From the NCBI GenBank assembly GCA_009885695.1, contig VFKE01000040.1:1-57093 (forward strand): a DNA stretch of 57,093 bases, given 5' to 3'. The translations under genes were made by a program, and so were the position numbers. The notes under the pieces are model-generated. The model ran no database searches, was not told where the DNA came from, and worked only from the letters and a program-made list of their open reading frames with translations. Numbering within the stretch: the first letter of the stretch is position 1; the number at the start of each line of letters is the position of its first letter. Positions 10,156 through 47,079 of the stretch are shown piece by piece. Source of the stretch: Verrucomicrobiota bacterium (GTDB taxonomy: Bacteria; Verrucomicrobiota; Verrucomicrobiia; Verrucomicrobiales; Verrucomicrobiaceae).

Positions 10156-10428
10156 ATGGCCCAAGCAATCATGGATCCCGAGGAGGTGCGGCGCTTCGCC
10201 AAGGAGTTGAAGCGCTTCAACGACGACACGCAGCAAAAGGCGTCCTCGCTTCAGGCGAGATTTTCGGCACTAGGCGCCACGTGGCAGGATCAGGAGCACG
10301 AGAAATTCGCCGAAGAATTTTTGACCACCATGAAAGTCATCCGGAAGTTCATGGAGATTTCGGAAAAGCACACGCCTTACCTCATGCGGAAGGCGCAGCG
10401 GATCGAGGAATACCTCGACCAACGTTAA
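10156..10428 (+). CDS. WXG100-like small helical protein
   Basis: 90 aa, almost all helix-forming, central ATWQDQEHEKF at the position of the WXG turn; first gene of the cluster with an FtsK/EssC-like ATPase. Confidence 0.7.
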   Translation: MAQAIMDPEEVRRFAKELKRFNDDTQQKASSLQARFSALGATWQDQEHEKFAEEFLTTMKVIRKFMEISEKHTPYLMRKAQRIEEYLDQR

Positions 10429-10431
10429 TCC

Positions 10432-10953
10432 ATGGCCACCGAGGCCAAGGTCCGCTCAGTGGACGCGCTGGAATCATTCCGCGCGAGCCTCATCATCTTT
10501 GTCACCCGGGCCCGAAGGGCGATCGACCAAGTGGGCGAGGAAGTATCGCGCACCCGACAGTGGGTTCTGACCGACCAGCGCATGCACTGGACTGAGCAGC
10601 TTCGTAAACGGACGCGTGCGATCCAGCAGGCGGAGCAGGAACTTTATTCAGCTAAATTTTCCACGCTCAAGGATTCAGTGAACATGCAGGAACAGGCGGT
10701 GCGCAAAGCGAAGCGGCATTTTGAAGAGGCGGAATTGAAGATGAGGAATGTGAAGATCTGGAATCGCGATTTCGACCGCATAGCCGATCCGCTGGTGAAT
10801 AAGCTCGACAGCGTCCGTCAGTTCCTTGAACACTCCATGCCCAAGGCCATCGCCTATTTGGAAACGACGCAGCGTATTCTCGATTCGTATGCCGAGGCAC
10901 CGCCGCCGATGTCCGCGCCTTCGCCGCCTGCGGAGCCGGAAAAGATGGCATGA
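10432..10953 (+). CDS. Coiled-coil protein in WXG100/EssC-like cluster, Pro-rich tail
   Basis: Starts 3 nt after the preceding stop; heptad-rich; tail APPPMSAPSPPAEPEK. Confidence 0.6.
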   Translation: MATEAKVRSVDALESFRASLIIFVTRARRAIDQVGEEVSRTRQWVLTDQRMHWTEQLRKRTRAIQQAEQELYSAKFSTLKDSVNMQEQAVRKAKRHFEEAELKMRNVKIWNRDFDRIADPLVNKLDSVRQFLEHSMPKAIAYLETTQRILDSYAEAPPPMSAPSPPAEPEKMA

Positions 10954-10999
10954 CCATGCTTGTCTTTGTCCAAAAACGATTATTCTTCGCACTCGCAAC

Positions 11000-11212
11000 A
11001 TGAGCACCCGTGTCAGTTCCACCAATCTTGAAGAAGCCGTGAAAAAACTCTCCGCCGAGTGGCAGGAGACGCGCGGTTATTGGATGGATGCGAAGAGCCG
11101 CGAGTTTGAACACGATTATCTCGCCGAACTCCCGAACCTCGTTTCCCAGGCAAGGACAGCCGTGGAGGAGCTGGATGCTTTCCTTAGAAAGGTCAGGAGC
11201 GCCTGTGAGTAA
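11000..11212 (+). CDS. Second WXG100-like small helical protein (70 aa)
   Basis: MSTRVSSTNLEEAVKKLSAEWQETRGYWMDAKSREFEHDYLAEL...; W-x-D-x5-F motif as in the 10156 ORF; overlaps the GTG start of the ATPase gene. Confidence 0.6.
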   Translation: MSTRVSSTNLEEAVKKLSAEWQETRGYWMDAKSREFEHDYLAELPNLVSQARTAVEELDAFLRKVRSACE

Positions 11213-14200
11213 CGGAATGGAACTGCGGGTCAGCCGGAGCCTGGAATTGCTGGGCGGACTGAGAAAAACTGTCTCTGACTTCGCGAAGCGGGAGGAGGTG
11301 ATGGTGCGCGAACTCAAGGCGCGACGTTACGCGATCGAGCAAAAGCACCAGGGTGCCGCGGACCAGACAGAAGCCGGACTGGTAAAATTGTTTGAGGAGG
11401 CGCGCGTGAAGTTCGACGAGCAGGAGCAGCGCATTCACGCTCGATTTGAAAATCGCCGCGCGCGCATCGAGCGACTGAAGCTCGTGATCTCGCGCAACAT
11501 CCCGCGACGGGCGAAGCAGGCCCGCACTGAGTGGCTGGGTGCTTTGCAAATGAAGCGATTCAAGATCGAGCGGCAAACGGCTCTGGATATCGACTCCGCT
11601 GGCACTGGTGTTGCTGGTTTTCTGCCGCAACTTGAAACACTGCGCGAAAAATTGGTCACGCTCGACCGCAGTGCGCGGCAAAGTTTCGGCGGTTGCAGAG
11701 CCTTCCAGCGAATGCTAAAACGAAAGCGCTGCGTGTCCGAAGGTGAAAGTTCGGAGCCTGTCGCGATGCTCGCCGCCACGCAGGATCACCTGAATAGCGC
11801 GGACATGAAGTTGGACGAATTTGCTGAATTTCCACTGCCTCGTTTCTTCTACTCGGTTTCGCCGTTCATCATCTTTCTCGGCATCATGGTTCTCTCCATC
11901 GGGCTTGCTTACGCGCTGAGTCCGCAAAAACAAACTTTATTTACCTTGGGAGTTTCAGGCATTGTCGCGGCGGCACTGACTCTGTTACTGCTCATCATCT
12001 ACCAGACGGGCATCGGCAAGGCTCGCCCCTTGGCCACGGAGATATCGACCCATCTTGCGGACGCGCGGCGACTGATCGTGGCGTGTGAGACAGCCACCAG
12101 CGGATTCAGTGATGCGGACCGCCGCCGGTTGCAGGAACGATGCGATCGGGAACGCGCGGCCATCGATGAGGAAAAAGTCCAGGCGGATGTCATCGAATCG
12201 GATTTCATGCGATCTGCGGAAACAAAGCTGGCCGCTCAGGTGCCGAGGGCGCTGGCAAAAAACGAGGAGTGGCTCAGGTCCAGGCTCGCGGTCATTGAGT
12301 CAGCGCGAGACGCCAGCCTCGGTCGATTGACTGGAGACGCCACATCTCGGCAGGGTGAACGCCACGTGGAGCGAAAGTCGGACATGAGCGCATGGTTCGC
12401 CGAGGAGGGCCGGCGCTGGAATGAAGTCGAAGGCTTATGGAAGCGCGAAATCGCCTCCTATTATGATGCTATTGCGAAGATGAACGCCGAGGTGGCCGGG
12501 CGATTCCCGGCAGTGGACAAGTCATTTGTCGAGAACTGGTGTCCGCCCGCTGAGTTCACTCCCGTGGCGCCATTCGCGCATCTCAAAGCTGACCTGTCGA
12601 AGCCGGCGGAATTCCTGCCCAAGGATCCGCGTCTCGCCCTGCCTGGCGCATCACAAGTTTCGCTCCCACTGTCGCTCGTATTTCCGCAGCAGGGTTCATT
12701 GCTGTTTGAAACCAGCGAATCCGCTTCAAACTCTTCCGTTGGTGTGCTGAATCAAGTGGTGCTGCGGCTGCTCGCGGCCAACCCGCCTGGCAAGCTTGCT
12801 TTCACCATCATTGATCCGGTCGGACTGGGTGAGAATTTCGCCGGTCTGATGCACCTTGCCGATTACGAGGAGAGCCTGATCAACCGGAAAATCTGGACGC
12901 AAAACGATCAGATCGATGACCGGCTCGCGGAACTCAATGAGCATATTGAGAAGGTGATCCAGATGTATCTCCGCAACGAATACGCGTCGATCACAGAATA
13001 CAATGCTCATGCCGGCAGTATCGCGGAAAAATATCATTTTCTGGTCGTCGCTGATTTTCCGGCGAATTTCAGCGAGACAGCGGCCAAGCGTCTTCAGAGC
13101 ATCGTTGCCAGCGGCCCGCGCTGCGGCGTGTTCACACTGTTGCATTGGGACCAGCGACTACAGATGCCTGACGGACTGGTGCCGGATGAACTGCGCAGAA
13201 ACAGCGTCTGCCTCAAGCGGGATGGGAATGCGTTTATTGTCGGAGGCGAGCAGATTGAAGCGGGTGCTGTGCTGGAGTTTGAGTCGTATCCCGACGAGGA
13301 TCTTGCCGCCGCACTCGTTCACAAAATCGGCAAGGCGAGTATTGATTCCAATCGCGTTGAGGTTCCCTTCTCGCAAATCGCACCCAAGCCATCGGAGTTA
13401 TGGATGGCAGACACGACGAACGAACTTAGGATCGCTATCGGGAGGACGGGTGCCACCAAGCACCAATATATGGCCATCGGCAAGGGCACTCGCCAGCATG
13501 CGTTGATTGCGGGCAAGACGGGTTCGGGTAAGTCCACGCTCTTTCATGTTATCATCACCAACCTCGCGCTCGCGTGCAGTCCTGACCAGGTGGAGTTCTA
13601 CCTTGTCGACTTCAAGAAGGGCGTTGAATTCAAGTGCTACGCCACCCATCGACTGCCGCACGCCCGGGTCGTTGCCATCGAGAGCGACCGCGAGTTTGGC
13701 CTGAGCGTTTTGCAGCGTGTCGATGAGGAATTAAAGCGCCGCGGCGACATGTTCCGCAAACTGGGCGTGCAGGATATTGCAGGCTACAAAAAGGCGGGCG
13801 GCAAGGAGCCCATCCCGCGCACGCTGCTCATCATCGACGAGTTTCAGGAGTTCTACACTGAGGACGACCAGATCGCGCAGAACGCATCTGTGCTTTTTGA
13901 CCGCATCGTGCGCCAGGGGCGTGCATTCGGCATCCATGTGCTGCTGGGATCCCAGACGCTGGGCGGTGCATACACTCTCGCCCGAGCCACGCTCGGTCAG
14001 ATGGTCATCCGCGTCGCTCTCCAGTGCAACGAGGCCGACTCCTACCTCATCATGGACGAGAACAACTCTGCGCCGCGCCTGCTCTCGCGCCCAGGCGAAG
14101 GCATCTACAATGATGCCGCTGGCGCGCTCGAAGGCAACAGTCCATTCCAAGTGGTCTGGATCGGCGATGAAGAGCGTGATGTGTATCTCAATAAAATCCG

Positions 14201-15095
14201 GTCACTGGCTGACGAACGGCACAATCGACATACGGCGCCGATTGTTTTCGAAGGCAACGCCCCCGCGGAAATCCGCGAGAACAGCGCGCTGGCCGCTGCG
14301 CTGGAGACGAAGCCCGAGAAGACGCCTTTTGCCGCCCGTTGCTGGCTTGGCGCGCCGAATTCAATCAAGGGACCCACCGAGGCCGTTTTTCAGCGACAAA
14401 GCGGCAACAATCTGCTCATCGTCGGCCAGCGCGAGGAGACAGCGATGACTCTGCTCGGGCTTTCGCTCGTGGCGCTGGCTGCGCAATATCCCGTTGGCAA
14501 TGCGAAGTTCTACTTCTTCCAAAGCGCTGCGCCGGGTTCGCCGGACGCGGAGTTTCTGGAGAACATCTTCAAGTTCATCCCGCACGGAGTTACCATTGCG
14601 CGGAGTCATGAGGCGGGCGACGTGATGAACGACATTTCAGATGAGTTGAAGAAGCGCGGCGCCGGGGATGAATTGTCAGGAACGGCGATGTTCGTGTTCA
14701 TTCATGGTCTGCAAAAATTCAAAAAACTCAAGCAGGATGACGACTTCAGTTTCTCCAGCAGCGATGATGGCGCCGCCAATCCCGGCGCGCAGTTGGGCGC
14801 GCTGCTGAGCGAGGGTGCCAGCCTCGGCATCCATCTCATCATCAGCGTGGACACATTCAACAATGTTGGCCGATTCCTCAGCCGCAAGGCGCTCACCGAA
14901 TTTGAGATGCGCGTTGTCTTCCAGATGAGCGCGAATGATTCCGCCAGCCTGATTGATTCGCCTAAGGCAGGCAATCTCGGTCTTCATCGTGCGCTGCTCT
15001 ACAATGAACACGAAGGCCAGATGGAAACCTTCCGGCCTTATGCCGCGCCCGATGCTGCATGGTTTGAGGACGCCGCTGCCAAACTTGCGAGATAA
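11205..15095 (+). CDS. FtsK/SpoIIIE-type ATPase, EssC/EccC-like, with N-terminal coiled coil and two TM segments
   Basis: TM pair FFYSVSPFIIFLGIMVLSIGLAYAL / LGVSGIVAAALTLLLLIIY; Walker A GKTGSGKST, Walker B TLLIIDEFQEF; a second FtsK-like domain with degenerate P-loop. GTG start at 11205 or ATG at 11217. Confidence 0.85.
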   Translation: MSNGMELRVSRSLELLGGLRKTVSDFAKREEVMVRELKARRYAIEQKHQGAADQTEAGLVKLFEEARVKFDEQEQRIHARFENRRARIERLKLVISRNIPRRAKQARTEWLGALQMKRFKIERQTALDIDSAGTGVAGFLPQLETLREKLVTLDRSARQSFGGCRAFQRMLKRKRCVSEGESSEPVAMLAATQDHLNSADMKLDEFAEFPLPRFFYSVSPFIIFLGIMVLSIGLAYALSPQKQTLFTLGVSGIVAAALTLLLLIIYQTGIGKARPLATEISTHLADARRLIVACETATSGFSDADRRRLQERCDRERAAIDEEKVQADVIESDFMRSAETKLAAQVPRALAKNEEWLRSRLAVIESARDASLGRLTGDATSRQGERHVERKSDMSAWFAEEGRRWNEVEGLWKREIASYYDAIAKMNAEVAGRFPAVDKSFVENWCPPAEFTPVAPFAHLKADLSKPAEFLPKDPRLALPGASQVSLPLSLVFPQQGSLLFETSESASNSSVGVLNQVVLRLLAANPPGKLAFTIIDPVGLGENFAGLMHLADYEESLINRKIWTQNDQIDDRLAELNEHIEKVIQMYLRNEYASITEYNAHAGSIAEKYHFLVVADFPANFSETAAKRLQSIVASGPRCGVFTLLHWDQRLQMPDGLVPDELRRNSVCLKRDGNAFIVGGEQIEAGAVLEFESYPDEDLAAALVHKIGKASIDSNRVEVPFSQIAPKPSELWMADTTNELRIAIGRTGATKHQYMAIGKGTRQHALIAGKTGSGKSTLFHVIITNLALACSPDQVEFYLVDFKKGVEFKCYATHRLPHARVVAIESDREFGLSVLQRVDEELKRRGDMFRKLGVQDIAGYKKAGGKEPIPRTLLIIDEFQEFYTEDDQIAQNASVLFDRIVRQGRAFGIHVLLGSQTLGGAYTLARATLGQMVIRVALQCNEADSYLIMDENNSAPRLLSRPGEGIYNDAAGALEGNSPFQVVWIGDEERDVYLNKIRSLADERHNRHTAPIVFEGNAPAEIRENSALAAALETKPEKTPFAARCWLGAPNSIKGPTEAVFQRQSGNNLLIVGQREETAMTLLGLSLVALAAQYPVGNAKFYFFQSAAPGSPDAEFLENIFKFIPHGVTIARSHEAGDVMNDISDELKKRGAGDELSGTAMFVFIHGLQKFKKLKQDDDFSFSSSDDGAANPGAQLGALLSEGASLGIHLIISVDTFNNVGRFLSRKALTEFEMRVVFQMSANDSASLIDSPKAGNLGLHRALLYNEHEGQMETFRPYAAPDAAWFEDAAAKLAR

Positions 15096-42044: not shown

Positions 42045-45000
42045 ATGCTCATCACAGAAAAAATTCTCGGCGACATCGGCGGCTGGCAGGTCATGAAGGC
42101 CGCGCGCGGGCTTTTGGTGGCAAATGTCGTGGAGAAAACCGAGCGGGCGGGGGATGATTTCCGAGGTCTGGTGCGCGAGGGGAAACGGAAATACGCGGTC
42201 ACGCTGACGGTGCAAGGACCGACGAAAGCCGAGTGCCGCTGCTCCTGCTCCGAGGCCCAACGCGGTCTTGTTTGTGCGCATGCCATCGCGGTCGCACTTG
42301 TATCCATAAGTAGCAGCCGACGTGAGGAGGCTCAAATTATCCGGCCTAGTGCGAACGAGATCGCGCGCAGCCATCACCCCGCAAAAAAGTCAGAGCCTCC
42401 TCACGTCGGCTGCTACGAAGTGCCGCCCGGGAGGTTTGATGTTTTTATTCCGGCGCAGCGGATGGAGTCCATGATCGGGGAGGGCGGACGGGTGCCCGTT
42501 TTTCTCCAGTTTCAATCCGGTGGAGACGAAATTGATCCGGTGGCGCAATGGCTCATGCAGCAGGACTTGCCCGTGCAAAGCGGGCCGCTTTCGCTGGATG
42601 TGAAGACGCTTGGCGGATTCCTCAATGTATTGCGCGATCATCCGCGGGTGTGGGAGGGTAGACCAGGCGGCGCGAAGAATCTACGTCGGCAATTCACTTT
42701 GGTTGAGGATGCTGTGGGTATGCTCGTAATACGGGCAGAATTTGCGCAGCCAAATAGCGTGACATTTTCCTGCGATGCATCGCATATCTCAAGGAGCGGC
42801 GATTGGCAATCGCCTCCGAAAACACCTTCCGCGCAGCGGGAAAATAAGATCGTAGGGGATGATACCCCGCGAACATCAAATAGAGACGCCTTGCGTTTGC
42901 AGTATGAAGGCGATTACCAATCGCCACTCCTTGTGGCTGGAGGCCGTTGGCTATTCCAACGGGAAACGCTTACGCTCGCCCCATTCTCAGTCACAGACTC
43001 GGAGGTCACCAAGCTCATTCGCGACTGCCTAGACAAAAAAAGCAGGGGAGTCGTGCGCGATCTTCGCTGGCTGGCGAGAAATCTCGATGCTCTGGAAAAT
43101 GTCATGTCGCTGGAGACGGACGAAGCCTTGTCGCATCTGCGGCTGGTTCCTGCGGAACCGCGGTTCGTCATCGAACTCGATGGCTCGCCGCGTCAGGCTA
43201 CAGCGCGGGTAGAGGTGGTCGTCGGCAGCGTGCGGCATCCGCTGTCATTGCCGAATCAGGAAACGTCAGGCGAGCCCTATCCGATTCTGGCCGCAGATGG
43301 CACTTTGACCTTCTACCAGAGGAATACCGCCCGTGAATTCCGGCTGCGAACAGAATTGGAAGCCGCCGGATTCGCCGTCAGCCCCGATGGCGGCTGGCCT
43401 CTAAAAGGCGAGCGCGAAGTGGCGGAATTCTTCGCCGTGGCGCTGCCGAGCTGGCAGAGGCGGCACGAAGTCGTCTTCTCAGAACGCTGGCTGGCGGCTT
43501 TCCGAGGCTGGAAAAGGATGGCGCCGATGGTGCGTGCCAATGAGCGGGACAGGAATGTCCCGCCTCCAGTGACTGGCTGGCTGGACATGGAGTTCGCCTA
43601 TGAAGCGGCGGACGGCTTCCGCGTGCCGCGGCATGAAGTGCTCCGGCTCATCCGCAGCGGCCAGCGGACCATGCGCGGCGCACAGGGTCAGACTTACGCG
43701 CTGGACAGCGACTCCTGCGATGAATTCGAATCACTCTTGAGCGAGTCCGGCGCGCGGCTGGGCGAGGGCCCTTCGACAAGCTCAGGGCGGGTGGAGTTGT
43801 CTGCCGACAACGGCCATATCCTGAATGAATTCCTCGCCGTCGGCCAGCCAATCTCCAAACTGGTGTTGCCGGACGAGGTGGAAGTGAGACGGCGGCTGGG
43901 CGACCTGGCCAGCAAGCTCCGGGACTATCAATTAGAAGGAGTCCGGTGGCTGATCGCGTCAGCCGAGGCCGGGCGCGGGGCGCTGTTGGCGGATGACATG
44001 GGACTGGGCAAGACTGTGCAGGTTATCGCGCTCCTGCGCTGGCTGGCAACATGTGAACAACTTTTGCCGAGATCGGCACTCGTGATCTGTCCGACATCAT
44101 TGATCTCAAATTGGAATGATGAATTAGAGCGTTTTGCTACTGAATTACACGTAAATATCATGCATGGAGAAGATCGACTTATTCACAAGTTATCTACAAA
44201 CAAATATAACGTAATATTAACATCTTATGCTTTGTTGTCAAAAGATTTACAACAACATAATGTAAGTTATTACCAAGCTGTGATCCTCGACGAAGCCAGT
44301 CACATCCGAAACCCGGACACTGCGGTCGCAAAGGCAGTATGCAGCCTGAATTCTCCCGTCCGCGTGGCCCTGACTGGCACGCCGGTCGAAAACTCCGTCC
44401 ATGACCTCTGGAGTCTGATGCGCTTCGTCCAGCCCGGGTTCCTCGGCACCCAGAAGGACTTCGCCGAGCGATATGTCAAGCCGCTGGCTTCTGCCGCCAC
44501 GGATCCGGGAGCGACCGGTAAAACGGCGCGCCGCTTGCGCACCAGATTGGGGCCGTTTGTCTTGCGCAGAACGAAAAAAGAGGTCGTTCGGGAATTGCCC
44601 GACAAGATCGAGAAGATCATCTTCTGTGACCTGTCCACCCAGCAGAAGGAGGTTTACAAGCGCCTGCTGGAGGAGGGTTGGGCCGAAATAAGAGATGCCC
44701 GACGCCGCAGCGCCAGGGCAGGGCGCATGACCATGTTCACTGTATTGCTCCGGCTCCGCCAGGTGTGCAACGATCTGCGGTTGCTGGGGCTGAACCGTGG
44801 CGACGGCGGCCCTCCGCCGTCATCGCTCATTCAGGCCGCCAAAGGCGGCGATGCTGTTTCTGACGCCGTCGAGGGCGACGGGGCCACTACCAGCGGCAAA
44901 TGGGAAGCCTTGGCCGACATCGTGGACGACGCCCTCGGCGGCGCGCACAAAATCCTCATCTTCAGCCAGTTCACCGGCATGTTGCGCCTCCTGCGCGACT

Positions 45001-45398
45001 GGCTGGACGCCCGCAGTGTCGGCCACAGCTACCTCGACGGCTCCACGCGCGACCGAGGGGCGCAGGTCGCCGCCTTCCAGACCGACCCCGCGCGGCGCGT
45101 CTTCCTCATCAGCCTCAAGGCCGGCGGCTACGGCCTGAATCTCACCGCCGCCGACCACGTCATCCTTGTTGAGCCCTGGTGGAATCCCGCCGTCGAAGCC
45201 CAGGCCATCGACCGCGCCCACCGCATCGGCCAGGCCAGCGTCGTCACCGCCAGCCGCCTCATCGCGCGCGGCACCGTGGAGGAGCGCATCCTGAAGCTCC
45301 AGGCCACCAAGCGCCAGTTCATGGCCTCCGCCGTCGAGGACGACCCGCTCACGCTGCCCGGACTGACTGACGACGACTTGGAGAGCCTGCTGGAGTGA
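42045..45398 (+). CDS. SWIM zinc-finger Snf2/SWI2 helicase
   Basis: CRCSCSEAQRGLVCAHAIAVAL (SWIM); LLADDMGLGKTVQVIALL, VILDEASHIRN, ALTGTPVENSVHDLWSLM, FLISLKAGGYGLNLTAADHVILVEPWWNPAVEAQAIDRAHRIGQ. Confidence 0.93.
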   Translation: MLITEKILGDIGGWQVMKAARGLLVANVVEKTERAGDDFRGLVREGKRKYAVTLTVQGPTKAECRCSCSEAQRGLVCAHAIAVALVSISSSRREEAQIIRPSANEIARSHHPAKKSEPPHVGCYEVPPGRFDVFIPAQRMESMIGEGGRVPVFLQFQSGGDEIDPVAQWLMQQDLPVQSGPLSLDVKTLGGFLNVLRDHPRVWEGRPGGAKNLRRQFTLVEDAVGMLVIRAEFAQPNSVTFSCDASHISRSGDWQSPPKTPSAQRENKIVGDDTPRTSNRDALRLQYEGDYQSPLLVAGGRWLFQRETLTLAPFSVTDSEVTKLIRDCLDKKSRGVVRDLRWLARNLDALENVMSLETDEALSHLRLVPAEPRFVIELDGSPRQATARVEVVVGSVRHPLSLPNQETSGEPYPILAADGTLTFYQRNTAREFRLRTELEAAGFAVSPDGGWPLKGEREVAEFFAVALPSWQRRHEVVFSERWLAAFRGWKRMAPMVRANERDRNVPPPVTGWLDMEFAYEAADGFRVPRHEVLRLIRSGQRTMRGAQGQTYALDSDSCDEFESLLSESGARLGEGPSTSSGRVELSADNGHILNEFLAVGQPISKLVLPDEVEVRRRLGDLASKLRDYQLEGVRWLIASAEAGRGALLADDMGLGKTVQVIALLRWLATCEQLLPRSALVICPTSLISNWNDELERFATELHVNIMHGEDRLIHKLSTNKYNVILTSYALLSKDLQQHNVSYYQAVILDEASHIRNPDTAVAKAVCSLNSPVRVALTGTPVENSVHDLWSLMRFVQPGFLGTQKDFAERYVKPLASAATDPGATGKTARRLRTRLGPFVLRRTKKEVVRELPDKIEKIIFCDLSTQQKEVYKRLLEEGWAEIRDARRRSARAGRMTMFTVLLRLRQVCNDLRLLGLNRGDGGPPPSSLIQAAKGGDAVSDAVEGDGATTSGKWEALADIVDDALGGAHKILIFSQFTGMLRLLRDWLDARSVGHSYLDGSTRDRGAQVAAFQTDPARRVFLISLKAGGYGLNLTAADHVILVEPWWNPAVEAQAIDRAHRIGQASVVTASRLIARGTVEERILKLQATKRQFMASAVEDDPLTLPGLTDDDLESLLE
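42310..42416. repeat. Element with perfect 24-bp inverted repeats, in frame inside Snf2 gene
   Basis: GTAGCAGCCGACGTGAGGAGGCTC (42310-42333) / GAGCCTCCTCACGTCGGCTGCTAC (42393-42416). Confidence 0.92.
42791..42932. repeat. Second nested palindromic element, in frame inside Snf2 gene
   Basis: AAGGAGCGGCGATTGGCAATCGCC (42791-42814) / GGCGATTACCAATCGCCACTCCTT (42909-42932), 2 mismatches in 24; each arm itself partly palindromic. Confidence 0.88.
43767..43791. repeat. Short palindrome of the CCTTCGACAAGCTCAGG type, in frame inside Snf2 gene
   Basis: GCCCTTCGACAAGCTCAGGGC, translated in the Snf2 frame as GPSTSSGR. Confidence 0.8.
44802..44852. repeat. Clustered hairpins inside the helicase region of the Snf2 gene
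   Basis: GACGGCGG-CCCT-CCGCCGTC (44802-44821) and GCCGCC-AAA-GGCGGC (44835-44849), with CATCGC/GCGATG around the latter. Confidence 0.65.
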
Positions 45399-46241: not shown

Positions 46242-46524
46242 GACTGGATGTTTGATGATGCACCACCAGACCGCAAGAAGTCTTGCTGACATTATTCGGC
46301 CGGATGGGAGTCTGGTTTGTTCGCAAACCCCTGCGCTTCAGATATGCGCTATCGAAGCGGGGTGGTGCCTTTGAGGTTCCGCAACCCCGCGGAACACCAG
46401 TCTTAATAACTTTATACAATATATGTAATGTAAAATAATATGGTGTCGGGGTCGATTTGAATTGTTGATGTCGTCAATTGAATGCTTGTTTATGCTTCTG
46501 GCGGCGAGAATAATATTCCTATCT

Positions 46525-47079
46525 ATGCCCGTCCGTTTACACTTCAACGAAAGGAAGGCAACGCAAGCTGCCGCCGTTCTGCTCAGGCTTCGAGGTGCCC
46601 CCATGAGCTACATGAAGTTGATTAAGCTGATGTATTTCGCGGATCGTGCCGCCCTCTTACGTTGGGGCCGACCGATCAGCACTGATCGCTACGTTTCCAT
46701 GGATCGCGGGCCAGTGTTGAGCAGAGTTCTGAATCTCGCGTCCGAAGATCATGGTCAAAGCTCTGTTTGGTCTGACTCGATCAGTGATCCAAGCAATTAT
46801 GAAGTTCAGTTGAAGTCGGGCGTCGGCACCGACGAGCTTTCGAAGGCTGTAATCGAGCTTCTCACCGAGATTTTTGAAAAGCATGGCGCAAGAAGCCGAT
46901 GGGAACTGGTTGACCTAGCCCACGAACTTCCGGAGTGGAGAAATCCGAACGGAAGTGCGATTCCCATTGAATACCGGGACATTCTCAAGGCCGAAGGTAA
47001 AACCGATGCGGAATCAGCTGCCGTGGAATCAGAACTTGATGAATTGGCTGAAATGGACCGGCTCCTTCATGCCTGCTGA
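46525..47079 (+). CDS. Panacea/SocA-like (DUF4065) domain protein, putative antitoxin
   Basis: YMKLIKLMYFADRAALLRWGRPISTDRYVSMDRGPVLSRVLNL. Confidence 0.75.
   Translation: MPVRLHFNERKATQAAAVLLRLRGAPMSYMKLIKLMYFADRAALLRWGRPISTDRYVSMDRGPVLSRVLNLASEDHGQSSVWSDSISDPSNYEVQLKSGVGTDELSKAVIELLTEIFEKHGARSRWELVDLAHELPEWRNPNGSAIPIEYRDILKAEGKTDAESAAVESELDELAEMDRLLHAC

What the first reader, a model, noticed from the sequence alone, without database searches (positions are those of the whole stretch)
10156..15095. Minimal type VII-like cluster: three tandem WXG100-like/coiled-coil proteins plus a two-TM double-FtsK ATPase in a diderm genome
Four tightly packed same-strand genes (gaps 3 and ~46 nt, then a start-stop overlap) encode three small all-helical proteins and an EssC/EccC-like ATPase. 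ORF1 (ATWQDQEHEKF) and ORF3 (GYWMDAKSREF) share W-x-D-x5-F, like a WXG turn with Asp replacing Gly. The window also encodes lpxD and kdsB, so an LPS outer membrane is likely. None of EccB/D/E, mycosin, EsaA, EssA/B or YukD is recognisable within ~10 kb. Established knowledge: FtsK/SpoIIIE ATPases drive WXG100 export in type VII systems. The inference is a divergent, minimal type VII-like exporter. WXG100-like genes outside monoderms may already have been surveyed; novelty is unverified.
Basis: partly seen in the sequence, partly recalled or inferred. Interest (0 to 1): 0.8.

Follow-up and report, generated by a model that had tools for sequence, protein, structure and literature searches.

The report
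Minimal WXG100–ATPase cassette in Verrucomicrobiota
Four adjacent genes in an outer-membrane-bearing bacterium form a conserved, stripped-down relative of the type VII protein-secretion machinery of Gram-positive bacteria; relatives of the kind were noted briefly before, but this exact four-gene version had not been described in the papers I could search and its function is untested.

Summary
The four genes at 10156-15095 recur in the same order across at least eight verrucomicrobial families, while their flanking genes differ between genera, so the quartet is the whole conserved unit. ORF1 is a genuine WXG100 protein (Pfam 37.5 bits, cut-off 27.3; nearest structure H. pylori HP0062, also W-x-D). 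ORF3 is a probable short WXG-like protein. ORF2 is predicted to be a long two-helix hairpin. The ATPase has three, not two, FtsK-like domains; only the middle one keeps Walker motifs. By HMM score and predicted fold it is nearest EccC/EssC, not DNA-pumping FtsK; by tree it belongs to a separate WXG-associated clade. ORF1 occurs once per genome, never without the ATPase, even where the operon is split. EccB, YukC, YukD and LXG models find nothing in the genome.

The kind is known: Zhang 2012 (a footnote naming verrucomicrobia), Uchiyama 2016 (Helicobacter), Bell 2024 (CoCoNuT-linked loci). New here: the toxin-free four-gene form with a two-TM ATPase, its mainly vertical inheritance, and one genus that cleanly lost both TM helices yet kept everything else. 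That loss argues against a simple ATPase-formed membrane pore, so export remains an inference.

The parts
10156..10428 (+). ORF1: WXG100 protein, 90 aa
   Evidence: PF06013 37.5 bits vs cut-off 27.3; PDB best HP0062 3fx7/2gts, then EsxA/EsxB; 74-86% identity across genera of the family
10282..10290 (+). W43-x-D45 hairpin-turn motif of ORF1
   Evidence: invariant in 32 homologues; same variant (WRD) in HP0062
10432..10953 (+). ORF2: 173-aa predicted long antiparallel two-helix hairpin (H7-75, H80-155) with Pro-rich tail
   Evidence: AF2 pLDDT 90.4; invariant R17, W44, Y153 in 29 homologues; no toxin domain and no Pfam family above cut-off
11000..11212 (+). ORF3: 70-aa short WXG-like protein with conserved C-terminal DCE
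   Evidence: W28, D30, F36 invariant, D68 and C69 nearly so; sub-threshold profile match in register to HP0062/EsxA; hhalign to ORF1 family P=0.00098 with W-x-D in register but probability only 22%
11081..11089 (+). W28-x-D30 motif of ORF3
11205..15095 (+). EccC/EssC-like ATPase, about 1,295 aa: N-terminal coiled coil, two TM helices, second coiled coil, three FtsK-like domains
   Evidence: PF01580 104.6 bits; NCBIfam EccCa/EccCb/EssC far above FtsK, though below their equivalog cut-offs; best Foldseek hit T. curvata EccC, E=1.3e-32
11865..11921 (+). predicted TM helix 1 (residues 221-239, counted from GTG 11205)
   Evidence: hydropathy; absent in genus g9
11943..11999 (+). predicted TM helix 2 (residues 247-265)
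   Evidence: hydropathy; absent in genus g9
12708..13196 (+). ATPase domain D1 (residues 502-664), degenerate, no Walker A
   Evidence: domain search; motif check
13422..14123 (+). ATPase domain D2 (residues 740-973), the only domain with intact Walker A and B
13512..13535 (+). Walker A GKTGSGKS of D2
   Evidence: GKTGSGKS in 48 of the sequences aligned
13824..13844 (+). Walker B LLIIDEF of D2
14331..15017 (+). ATPase domain D3 (residues 1043-1271), degenerate, no Walker A
   Evidence: domain search; motif check

Best explanation
A stand-alone, four-gene, type VII-like WXG100-handling machine. The inferred mechanism: the ATPase hexamerises through its three RecA-like domains, with D2 the only ATP-burning ring and D1 and D3 serving as scaffold and substrate-binding rings. 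ORF1, as a homodimer or an ORF1-ORF3 heterodimer, is recognised by the cytosolic ATPase rings and is translocated, or acts as the gating or targeting factor. ORF2, a long helical hairpin, is a co-substrate or adaptor in the position where relatives carry a coiled coil fused to a nuclease. The most likely outcome is export of ORF1 (with ORF3 and/or ORF2) across the inner membrane into the periplasm. Shown here: the family of ORF1, the EccC-like three-domain ATPase with one active domain, the conserved gene set, co-retention, and absence of the other T7SS parts that were searched. Inferred only: hexamerisation, binding between the parts, and export.
For: WXG100 HMM hit above cut-off. ATPase nearest EccC/EssC by HMM, phmmer and predicted fold, and apart from FtsK/HerA in the D2 tree. 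Four-gene order conserved in at least eight families while the flanks differ between genera. ORF1 exactly once in 43 of 68 family genomes, with the type-A ATPase in all 43 and never without it (2 ATPase-only cases, both fragmented drafts), including genomes where ORF1, or ORF1+ORF2, lies on another contig. Distant relatives keep WXG100 + coiled-coil protein + 73-77 aa protein + ATPase, and in a Helicobacter plasmid the coiled-coil protein ends in a WHH/colicin-DNase domain followed by a SUKH-type immunity gene, which fits a delivery role for that architecture.
Against: No secretion data. Both TM helices are lost, apparently once, in genus g9 while D1-D3, ORF2 and ORF3 (and ORF1, sometimes unlinked) are kept; relatives elsewhere also lack TM (PMC11090510). 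No inner- or outer-membrane channel gene is conserved with the cassette. No recognisable toxin, LXG protein or second WXG100 substrate in the genome. ORF1 is more conserved than the ATPase (median 79% vs 56% identity), unusual for a cargo that meets targets outside the cell, although that is also expected of a core co-secreted partner.
Confidence: 0.55

Rival explanations
1. Intracellular, non-exporting machine: the ATPase ring and the WXG100-like proteins form a cytosolic or membrane-tethered complex (stress sensing, defence, or remodelling of coiled-coil assemblies) and nothing is secreted.
For: TM helices dispensable in genus g9 and absent in distant relatives; no channel and no toxin; homologous loci sit with VWA, PP2C, kinase, CARF or TerD genes and in CoCoNuT defence operons, whose authors note that lack of TM implies a different mechanism; strong conservation of ORF1.
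Against: The window's cassette and most relatives do carry two TM helices; stand-alone, no defence genes conserved nearby; WXG100 proteins studied so far are T7SS partners or substrates; toxin-immunity pairs in relatives.
Confidence: 0.27
2. Toxin-delivery system whose effectors are encoded elsewhere or lost; the four genes are the engine plus targeting factors.
For: Relatives pair the same gene set with coiled-coil::nuclease proteins and immunity-like genes, including second copies in Verrucomicrobiota (L114, L115).
Against: No LXG in the genome; ORF1-type WXG100 exactly one per genome across the family; ORF2 of similar length (156-194 aa) and never toxin-fused in 42 homologues; ORF2 shows no detectable homology to the nuclease proteins' N-termini.
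Confidence: 0.13
3. DNA translocase of the FtsK/HerA kind with small coiled-coil accessory proteins.
For: Shares the FtsK_SpoIIIE domain; PADLOC SspH, mad8 and HerA models match weakly to moderately.
Against: EccC/EssC score far above FtsK; three tandem domains align over their length to EccC; tree separates it from FtsK, HerA and the SspH-like rows; relatives carry a separate ~880-aa FtsK; WXG100 partner.
Confidence: 0.05

Closest known systems
'Solo WXG' + YueA-like ATPase with three HerA/FtsK domains, only the middle one active (Zhang et al. 2012, PMC3482391, Table 1 footnote 6)
   Same: WXG100 protein plus three-domain ATPase with only D2 active; verrucomicrobia named among the hosts
EssC-like ATPase/WXG100 module of extended type III-A CoCoNuT systems (Bell et al. 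2024, PMC11090510)
   Same: Three ATPase domains with only D2 active, N-terminal coiled coil, two WXG100-type proteins, a coiled-coil protein
   Different: There the ATPase has no TM, the coiled coil is fused to a D-ExK nuclease, and the module lies between VWA genes in a defence operon; here no nuclease, two TM, stand-alone
H. pylori WXG100 secretion cluster HP0062-HP0066 (Uchiyama et al. 2016, PMC4978471; HP0062 structure 3FX7)
   Same: Diderm host, W-x-D WXG100 protein (nearest solved relative of ORF1) plus FtsK-type ATPase
   Different: That cluster includes an HNH/EndoVII nuclease; ORF2-type hairpin not reported
T7SSa (EccC/ESX) and T7SSb (EssC/Ess), and T7SSc-j (Garrett et al. 2024, PMC11217815)
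   Same: WXG100 plus EccC/EssC-type ATPase with tandem ATPase domains, TM near the N-terminus
   Different: No EccB, YukD or YukC found in the genome; active domain is the middle one; coiled coils flank the TM pair; no FHA domain seen; LPS diderm host

Membership tests
Type VII secretion system (T7SSa/T7SSb) | WXG100-family partner encoded with the ATPase | tested here: met
   ORF1 PF06013 37.5 bits > 27.3
Type VII secretion system (T7SSa/T7SSb) | EccC or EssC equivalog score | tested here: not met
   Best-scoring models are EccCa 117.5, EccCb 100.4 and EssC 90.8 bits, but far below cut-offs 509, 347 and 778
Type VII secretion system (T7SSa/T7SSb) | Tandem EccC-like ATPase domains, predicted fold | tested here: met
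   AF2 model best matches 4nh0 EccC, E=1.3e-32 over 903 columns, then EssC 4lya; FtsK 1e-16; interdomain arrangement differs (TM-score 0.40)
Type VII secretion system (T7SSa/T7SSb) | EssC-type Walker motifs in D1 and D2 | tested here: not met
   Only D2 has Walker A; D1 and D3 degenerate in all type-A homologues checked
Type VII secretion system (T7SSa/T7SSb) | EccB or EssB/YukC, EsaB/YukD membrane and ubiquitin-like parts | tested here: not met
   No PF05108, PF10140 or PF08817 match at E<=1 in the 92%-complete genome; EccD, EccE, EssA and EsaA not searched one by one, but no extra gene is conserved around the cassette
Type VII secretion system (T7SSa/T7SSb) | ATPase-dependent secretion of the WXG100 protein | not testable with these tools
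   needs a bench test
Solo-WXG / middle-active three-domain ATPase family (Zhang 2012; Bell 2024) | Three FtsK-like domains, only the middle active | tested here: met
Solo-WXG / middle-active three-domain ATPase family (Zhang 2012; Bell 2024) | WXG100 gene in the same operon | tested here: met
Solo-WXG / middle-active three-domain ATPase family (Zhang 2012; Bell 2024) | ATPase groups with those of other WXG-associated loci | tested here: met
   one clade of 27 rows, support 93/95, with Caballeronia, Helicobacter, Deinococcus and Rhodococcus loci
CoCoNuT-associated EssC/WXG100 module | coiled coil fused to D-ExK nuclease, flanking VWA genes | tested here: not met
   ORF2 ends without a domain; no VWA gene in the conserved neighbourhood. 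Such copies do occur elsewhere in the phylum (L114, L115)
CoCoNuT-associated EssC/WXG100 module | ATPase without TM helices | tested here: not met
   Window ATPase has two; genus g9 has none
WXG100 family, for ORF3 | Significant WXG100 profile match | tested here: inconclusive
   No Pfam hit; profile E=0.09 to HP0062 and 0.5-0.95 to EsxA in register; hhalign P=0.00098 but probability 22%
WXG100/LXG family, for ORF2 | Profile match to WXG100 or to coiled-coil toxin N-termini | tested here: not met
   hhalign probabilities 0.8% and 1.9%
FtsK DNA translocase | Best scores and tree position with FtsK | tested here: not met
   FtsK 27.9 bits vs EccCa 117.5; tree

The most novel reading that the evidence does not exclude
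A distinct type VII-like subtype of LPS diderms made of only four genes, in which a single middle ATPase ring drives a WXG100 dimer together with a hairpin adaptor, and in which the ATPase's own TM helices are dispensable. The membrane route would then not be an ATPase-formed pore, separating the motor from the channel in type VII-like transport.
Probability: 0.25. Interest if true: 0.78.

Novelty: new variant of a known kind. Interest (0 to 1): 0.5.

Why it matters
Type VII secretion is taught as a Gram-positive/mycobacterial system with many membrane parts. A cassette of four genes, co-retained for long evolutionary times in bacteria with an LPS outer membrane, gives the smallest set in which to ask what a WXG100 protein and an EccC-like motor do together. 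The genus that lost the TM helices is a ready-made natural experiment on whether the ATPase is the membrane pore. Near-complete genomes with the cassette exist (for example G067, a single 8.22-Mb contig), so culture tests look feasible.

Tried and rejected
Homology of ORF2 to the N-termini of the coiled-coil::nuclease proteins of relatives: rejected, hhalign probability 1.9%. ORF2 as WXG100: rejected. A specific fold for ORF2: Foldseek gave nothing below E=0.001, only generic coiled coils. ORF2 and ORF3 against PDB profiles: nothing significant. Phage origin: no ORF1 relative in viral contigs or phage records; one remote ATPase in a contig filed as viral. Anti-phage defence: PADLOC matches SspH, mad8 and HerA through the ATPase core only, and the very long (about 1,850 aa) relatives L132 and L133, which resemble SspH in length, fall with the FtsK side of the tree. 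A conserved fifth gene: flanks compared over up to about 8 kb each side, none found across genera. The genome-contig scan with the single protein found only close or spurious relatives, so distribution outside the phylum is known only from plasmid records. Limits: hexamers and ORF1-ORF3 pairing could not be modelled (monomer predictions only); the two prediction jobs went to ORF2 and the ATPase, so ORF1 and ORF3 hairpins rest on sequence.
Full report
OBSERVATION. They are real genes: tblastn recovers them, in this order, in the other genomes of the same family that carry the system and in further families and orders of the phylum. The window is a contig of a 3.47-Mb, 92%-complete genome; a genome of the same genus is titled Verrucomicrobia bacterium. 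lpxD, kdsB and ShlB support an LPS outer membrane.

THE UNIT IS EXACTLY FOUR GENES. Clustering of neighbouring ORFs in about 30 loci shows that flanking genes differ between genera, while the quartet stays. In the family, ORF1 occurs in 43 of 68 genomes, once each; the type-A ATPase is in 45; ORF1 is never seen without it, and the two ATPase-only cases are draft genomes of 81% and 86% completeness, one of them with the ATPase cut at a contig edge (Fisher p about 4e-16, but genomes are related, so this is not 68 independent trials). In genus g9, ORF1 lies on a different contig from the ATPase in at least six genomes; in two checked cases it sits well inside a contig among unrelated genes, and in G023 the operon is split into ORF1+ORF2 and ORF3+ATPase. 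Co-retention without linkage is good evidence of a functional link.

THE PARTS. ORF1 passes Pfam's WXG100 cut-off; its nearest structures are H. pylori HP0062, then EsxA and EsxB. HP0062 also has Asp in the turn (WRD), is a dimeric hairpin and neighbours an FtsK/SpoIIIE gene (PMC3397514), so the W-x-D variant is not novel. ORF1 is the most conserved part (median identity 79% in the family, against 56% for the ATPase, 46% for ORF2 and 47% for ORF3). ORF3 keeps W-x-D-x5-F and ends in a conserved DCE; its link to WXG100 is suggestive only. ORF2 is predicted with high confidence (pLDDT 90) as two helices of about 70 residues packed as a hairpin, with no specific structural relative.

THE ATPASE. 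It carries an N-terminal coiled coil, two TM helices (residues 221-239 and 247-265), a second coiled coil and three FtsK-like domains. The coiled coils are read from the sequence, not predicted by a tool. Only D2 has Walker A (GKTGSGKS) and Walker B. In NCBIfam it scores 117.5 (EccCa), 100.4 (EccCb) and 90.8 (EssC) against 27.9 for FtsK, all below the equivalog cut-offs. The model of residues 456-1296 (pLDDT 86) matches the whole EccC cytoplasmic region first (E 1e-32), then EccC and EssC ATPases 2-3, then FtsK at 1e-16. In a D2 tree it sits in one clade (support 93/95) with ATPases of other WXG-linked loci, apart from FtsK/HerA and from EccC/YukB; several branches there are long, so order among these groups is not claimed. 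Within the phylum the tree follows families closely (4 label changes where 3 is the minimum, none of 200 shuffles as low), which suggests mainly vertical descent, unlike the 'mobile' label of Zhang 2012.

TM LOSS. In genus g9 the ATPase is 1,205-1,229 aa and the TM segment is cleanly missing; on the tree this is one loss. ORF2 and ORF3, D1-D3 and Walker D2 are intact. This is the strongest single piece of evidence against a simple reading in which the ATPase forms the membrane pore.

RELATIVES AND FUNCTION. Distant relatives on plasmids of Caballeronia, Rhodococcus, Deinococcus and Helicobacter keep an ATPase of this kind with small helical proteins. In the Helicobacter plasmid the coiled-coil protein ends in a WHH/colicin-DNase domain and is followed by a SUKH-family gene, a typical toxin-immunity pair. 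In Caballeronia and in second copies in two verrucomicrobial genomes (L114, L115) the coiled-coil protein ends in a conserved domain with a D...ExK pattern, the arrangement described for CoCoNuT-linked modules (PMC11090510). These contexts are why a delivery role is my best guess for the architecture; but the window's own system has no toxin domain, no LXG protein, no second WXG100 and no EccB, YukC or YukD.

PRIOR ART. Zhang 2012 names verrucomicrobia among lineages with 'solo WXG' and a three-domain ATPase with only the middle active, which matches exactly. Uchiyama 2016 calls WXG plus FtsK a minimal type VII set in Helicobacter; Bell 2024 describes the nuclease-bearing form and cites Anantharaman 2012 for a stand-alone version. 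Garrett 2024 extends T7SS to subtypes c-j, in Gram-positives only. The library searched holds open-licence papers only, so a dedicated description elsewhere is possible (the 2011 survey by Sutcliffe, known to me from memory, was not available).

VERDICT. Real, conserved, correctly recognised in outline; a new variant of a known but barely studied kind. Export is plausible and unproven.

Noticed in passing
L055-L063, L069 (genus g9): The ATPase has lost both TM helices by a clean internal deletion while all other conserved parts remain; the loss is a single event on the tree.
   Followed up: yes
L114:4166-10278 and L115:5489-10256: Second, different WXG100-ATPase loci in Verrucomicrobiota with a coiled coil fused to a D...ExK nuclease-like domain (and in L114 a VWA gene and a small immunity-like gene), like the CoCoNuT-linked form; G428 carries both kinds.
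   Followed up: partly
L084:5758-10160 (Helicobacter sp. NHP19-012 plasmid): WXG100-like gene, coiled coil ending in a WHH/colicin-DNase domain, SUKH-family gene, 77-aa protein and ATPase: a toxin-immunity pair embedded in the cassette of a diderm.
   Followed up: partly
L150:2586-9389: Contig filed as viral with a JAB-like protein, a ThiF/E1-like protein, a 74-aa protein, an FtsK-type ATPase, a W-N-D WXG100-like protein and a coiled-coil protein with an unknown C-terminal end; a ubiquitin-like pathway next to a WXG cassette. Assignments by eye.
   Followed up: no
L144:9936-10208, L145:9946-10218, L146:10060-10848: ORF1 (or ORF1+ORF2) relocated away from the ATPase in some g9 genomes yet retained.
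   Followed up: yes
L039-L125, ORF3 C-terminus: Almost every ORF3 ends in a conserved D-C-E; a near-invariant cysteine in a cytosolic-looking 70-aa protein is unexplained.
   Followed up: no
window 46462-47079: SocA/Panacea-domain (antitoxin-like) gene near a SNF2 helicase gene (42045-45398); possible toxin-antitoxin remnant.
   Followed up: no
G000 (own genome): No second FtsK_SpoIIIE match above cut-off, i.e. the housekeeping FtsK is not found in this 92%-complete assembly although nearly all relatives have it; probably an assembly gap.
   Followed up: no
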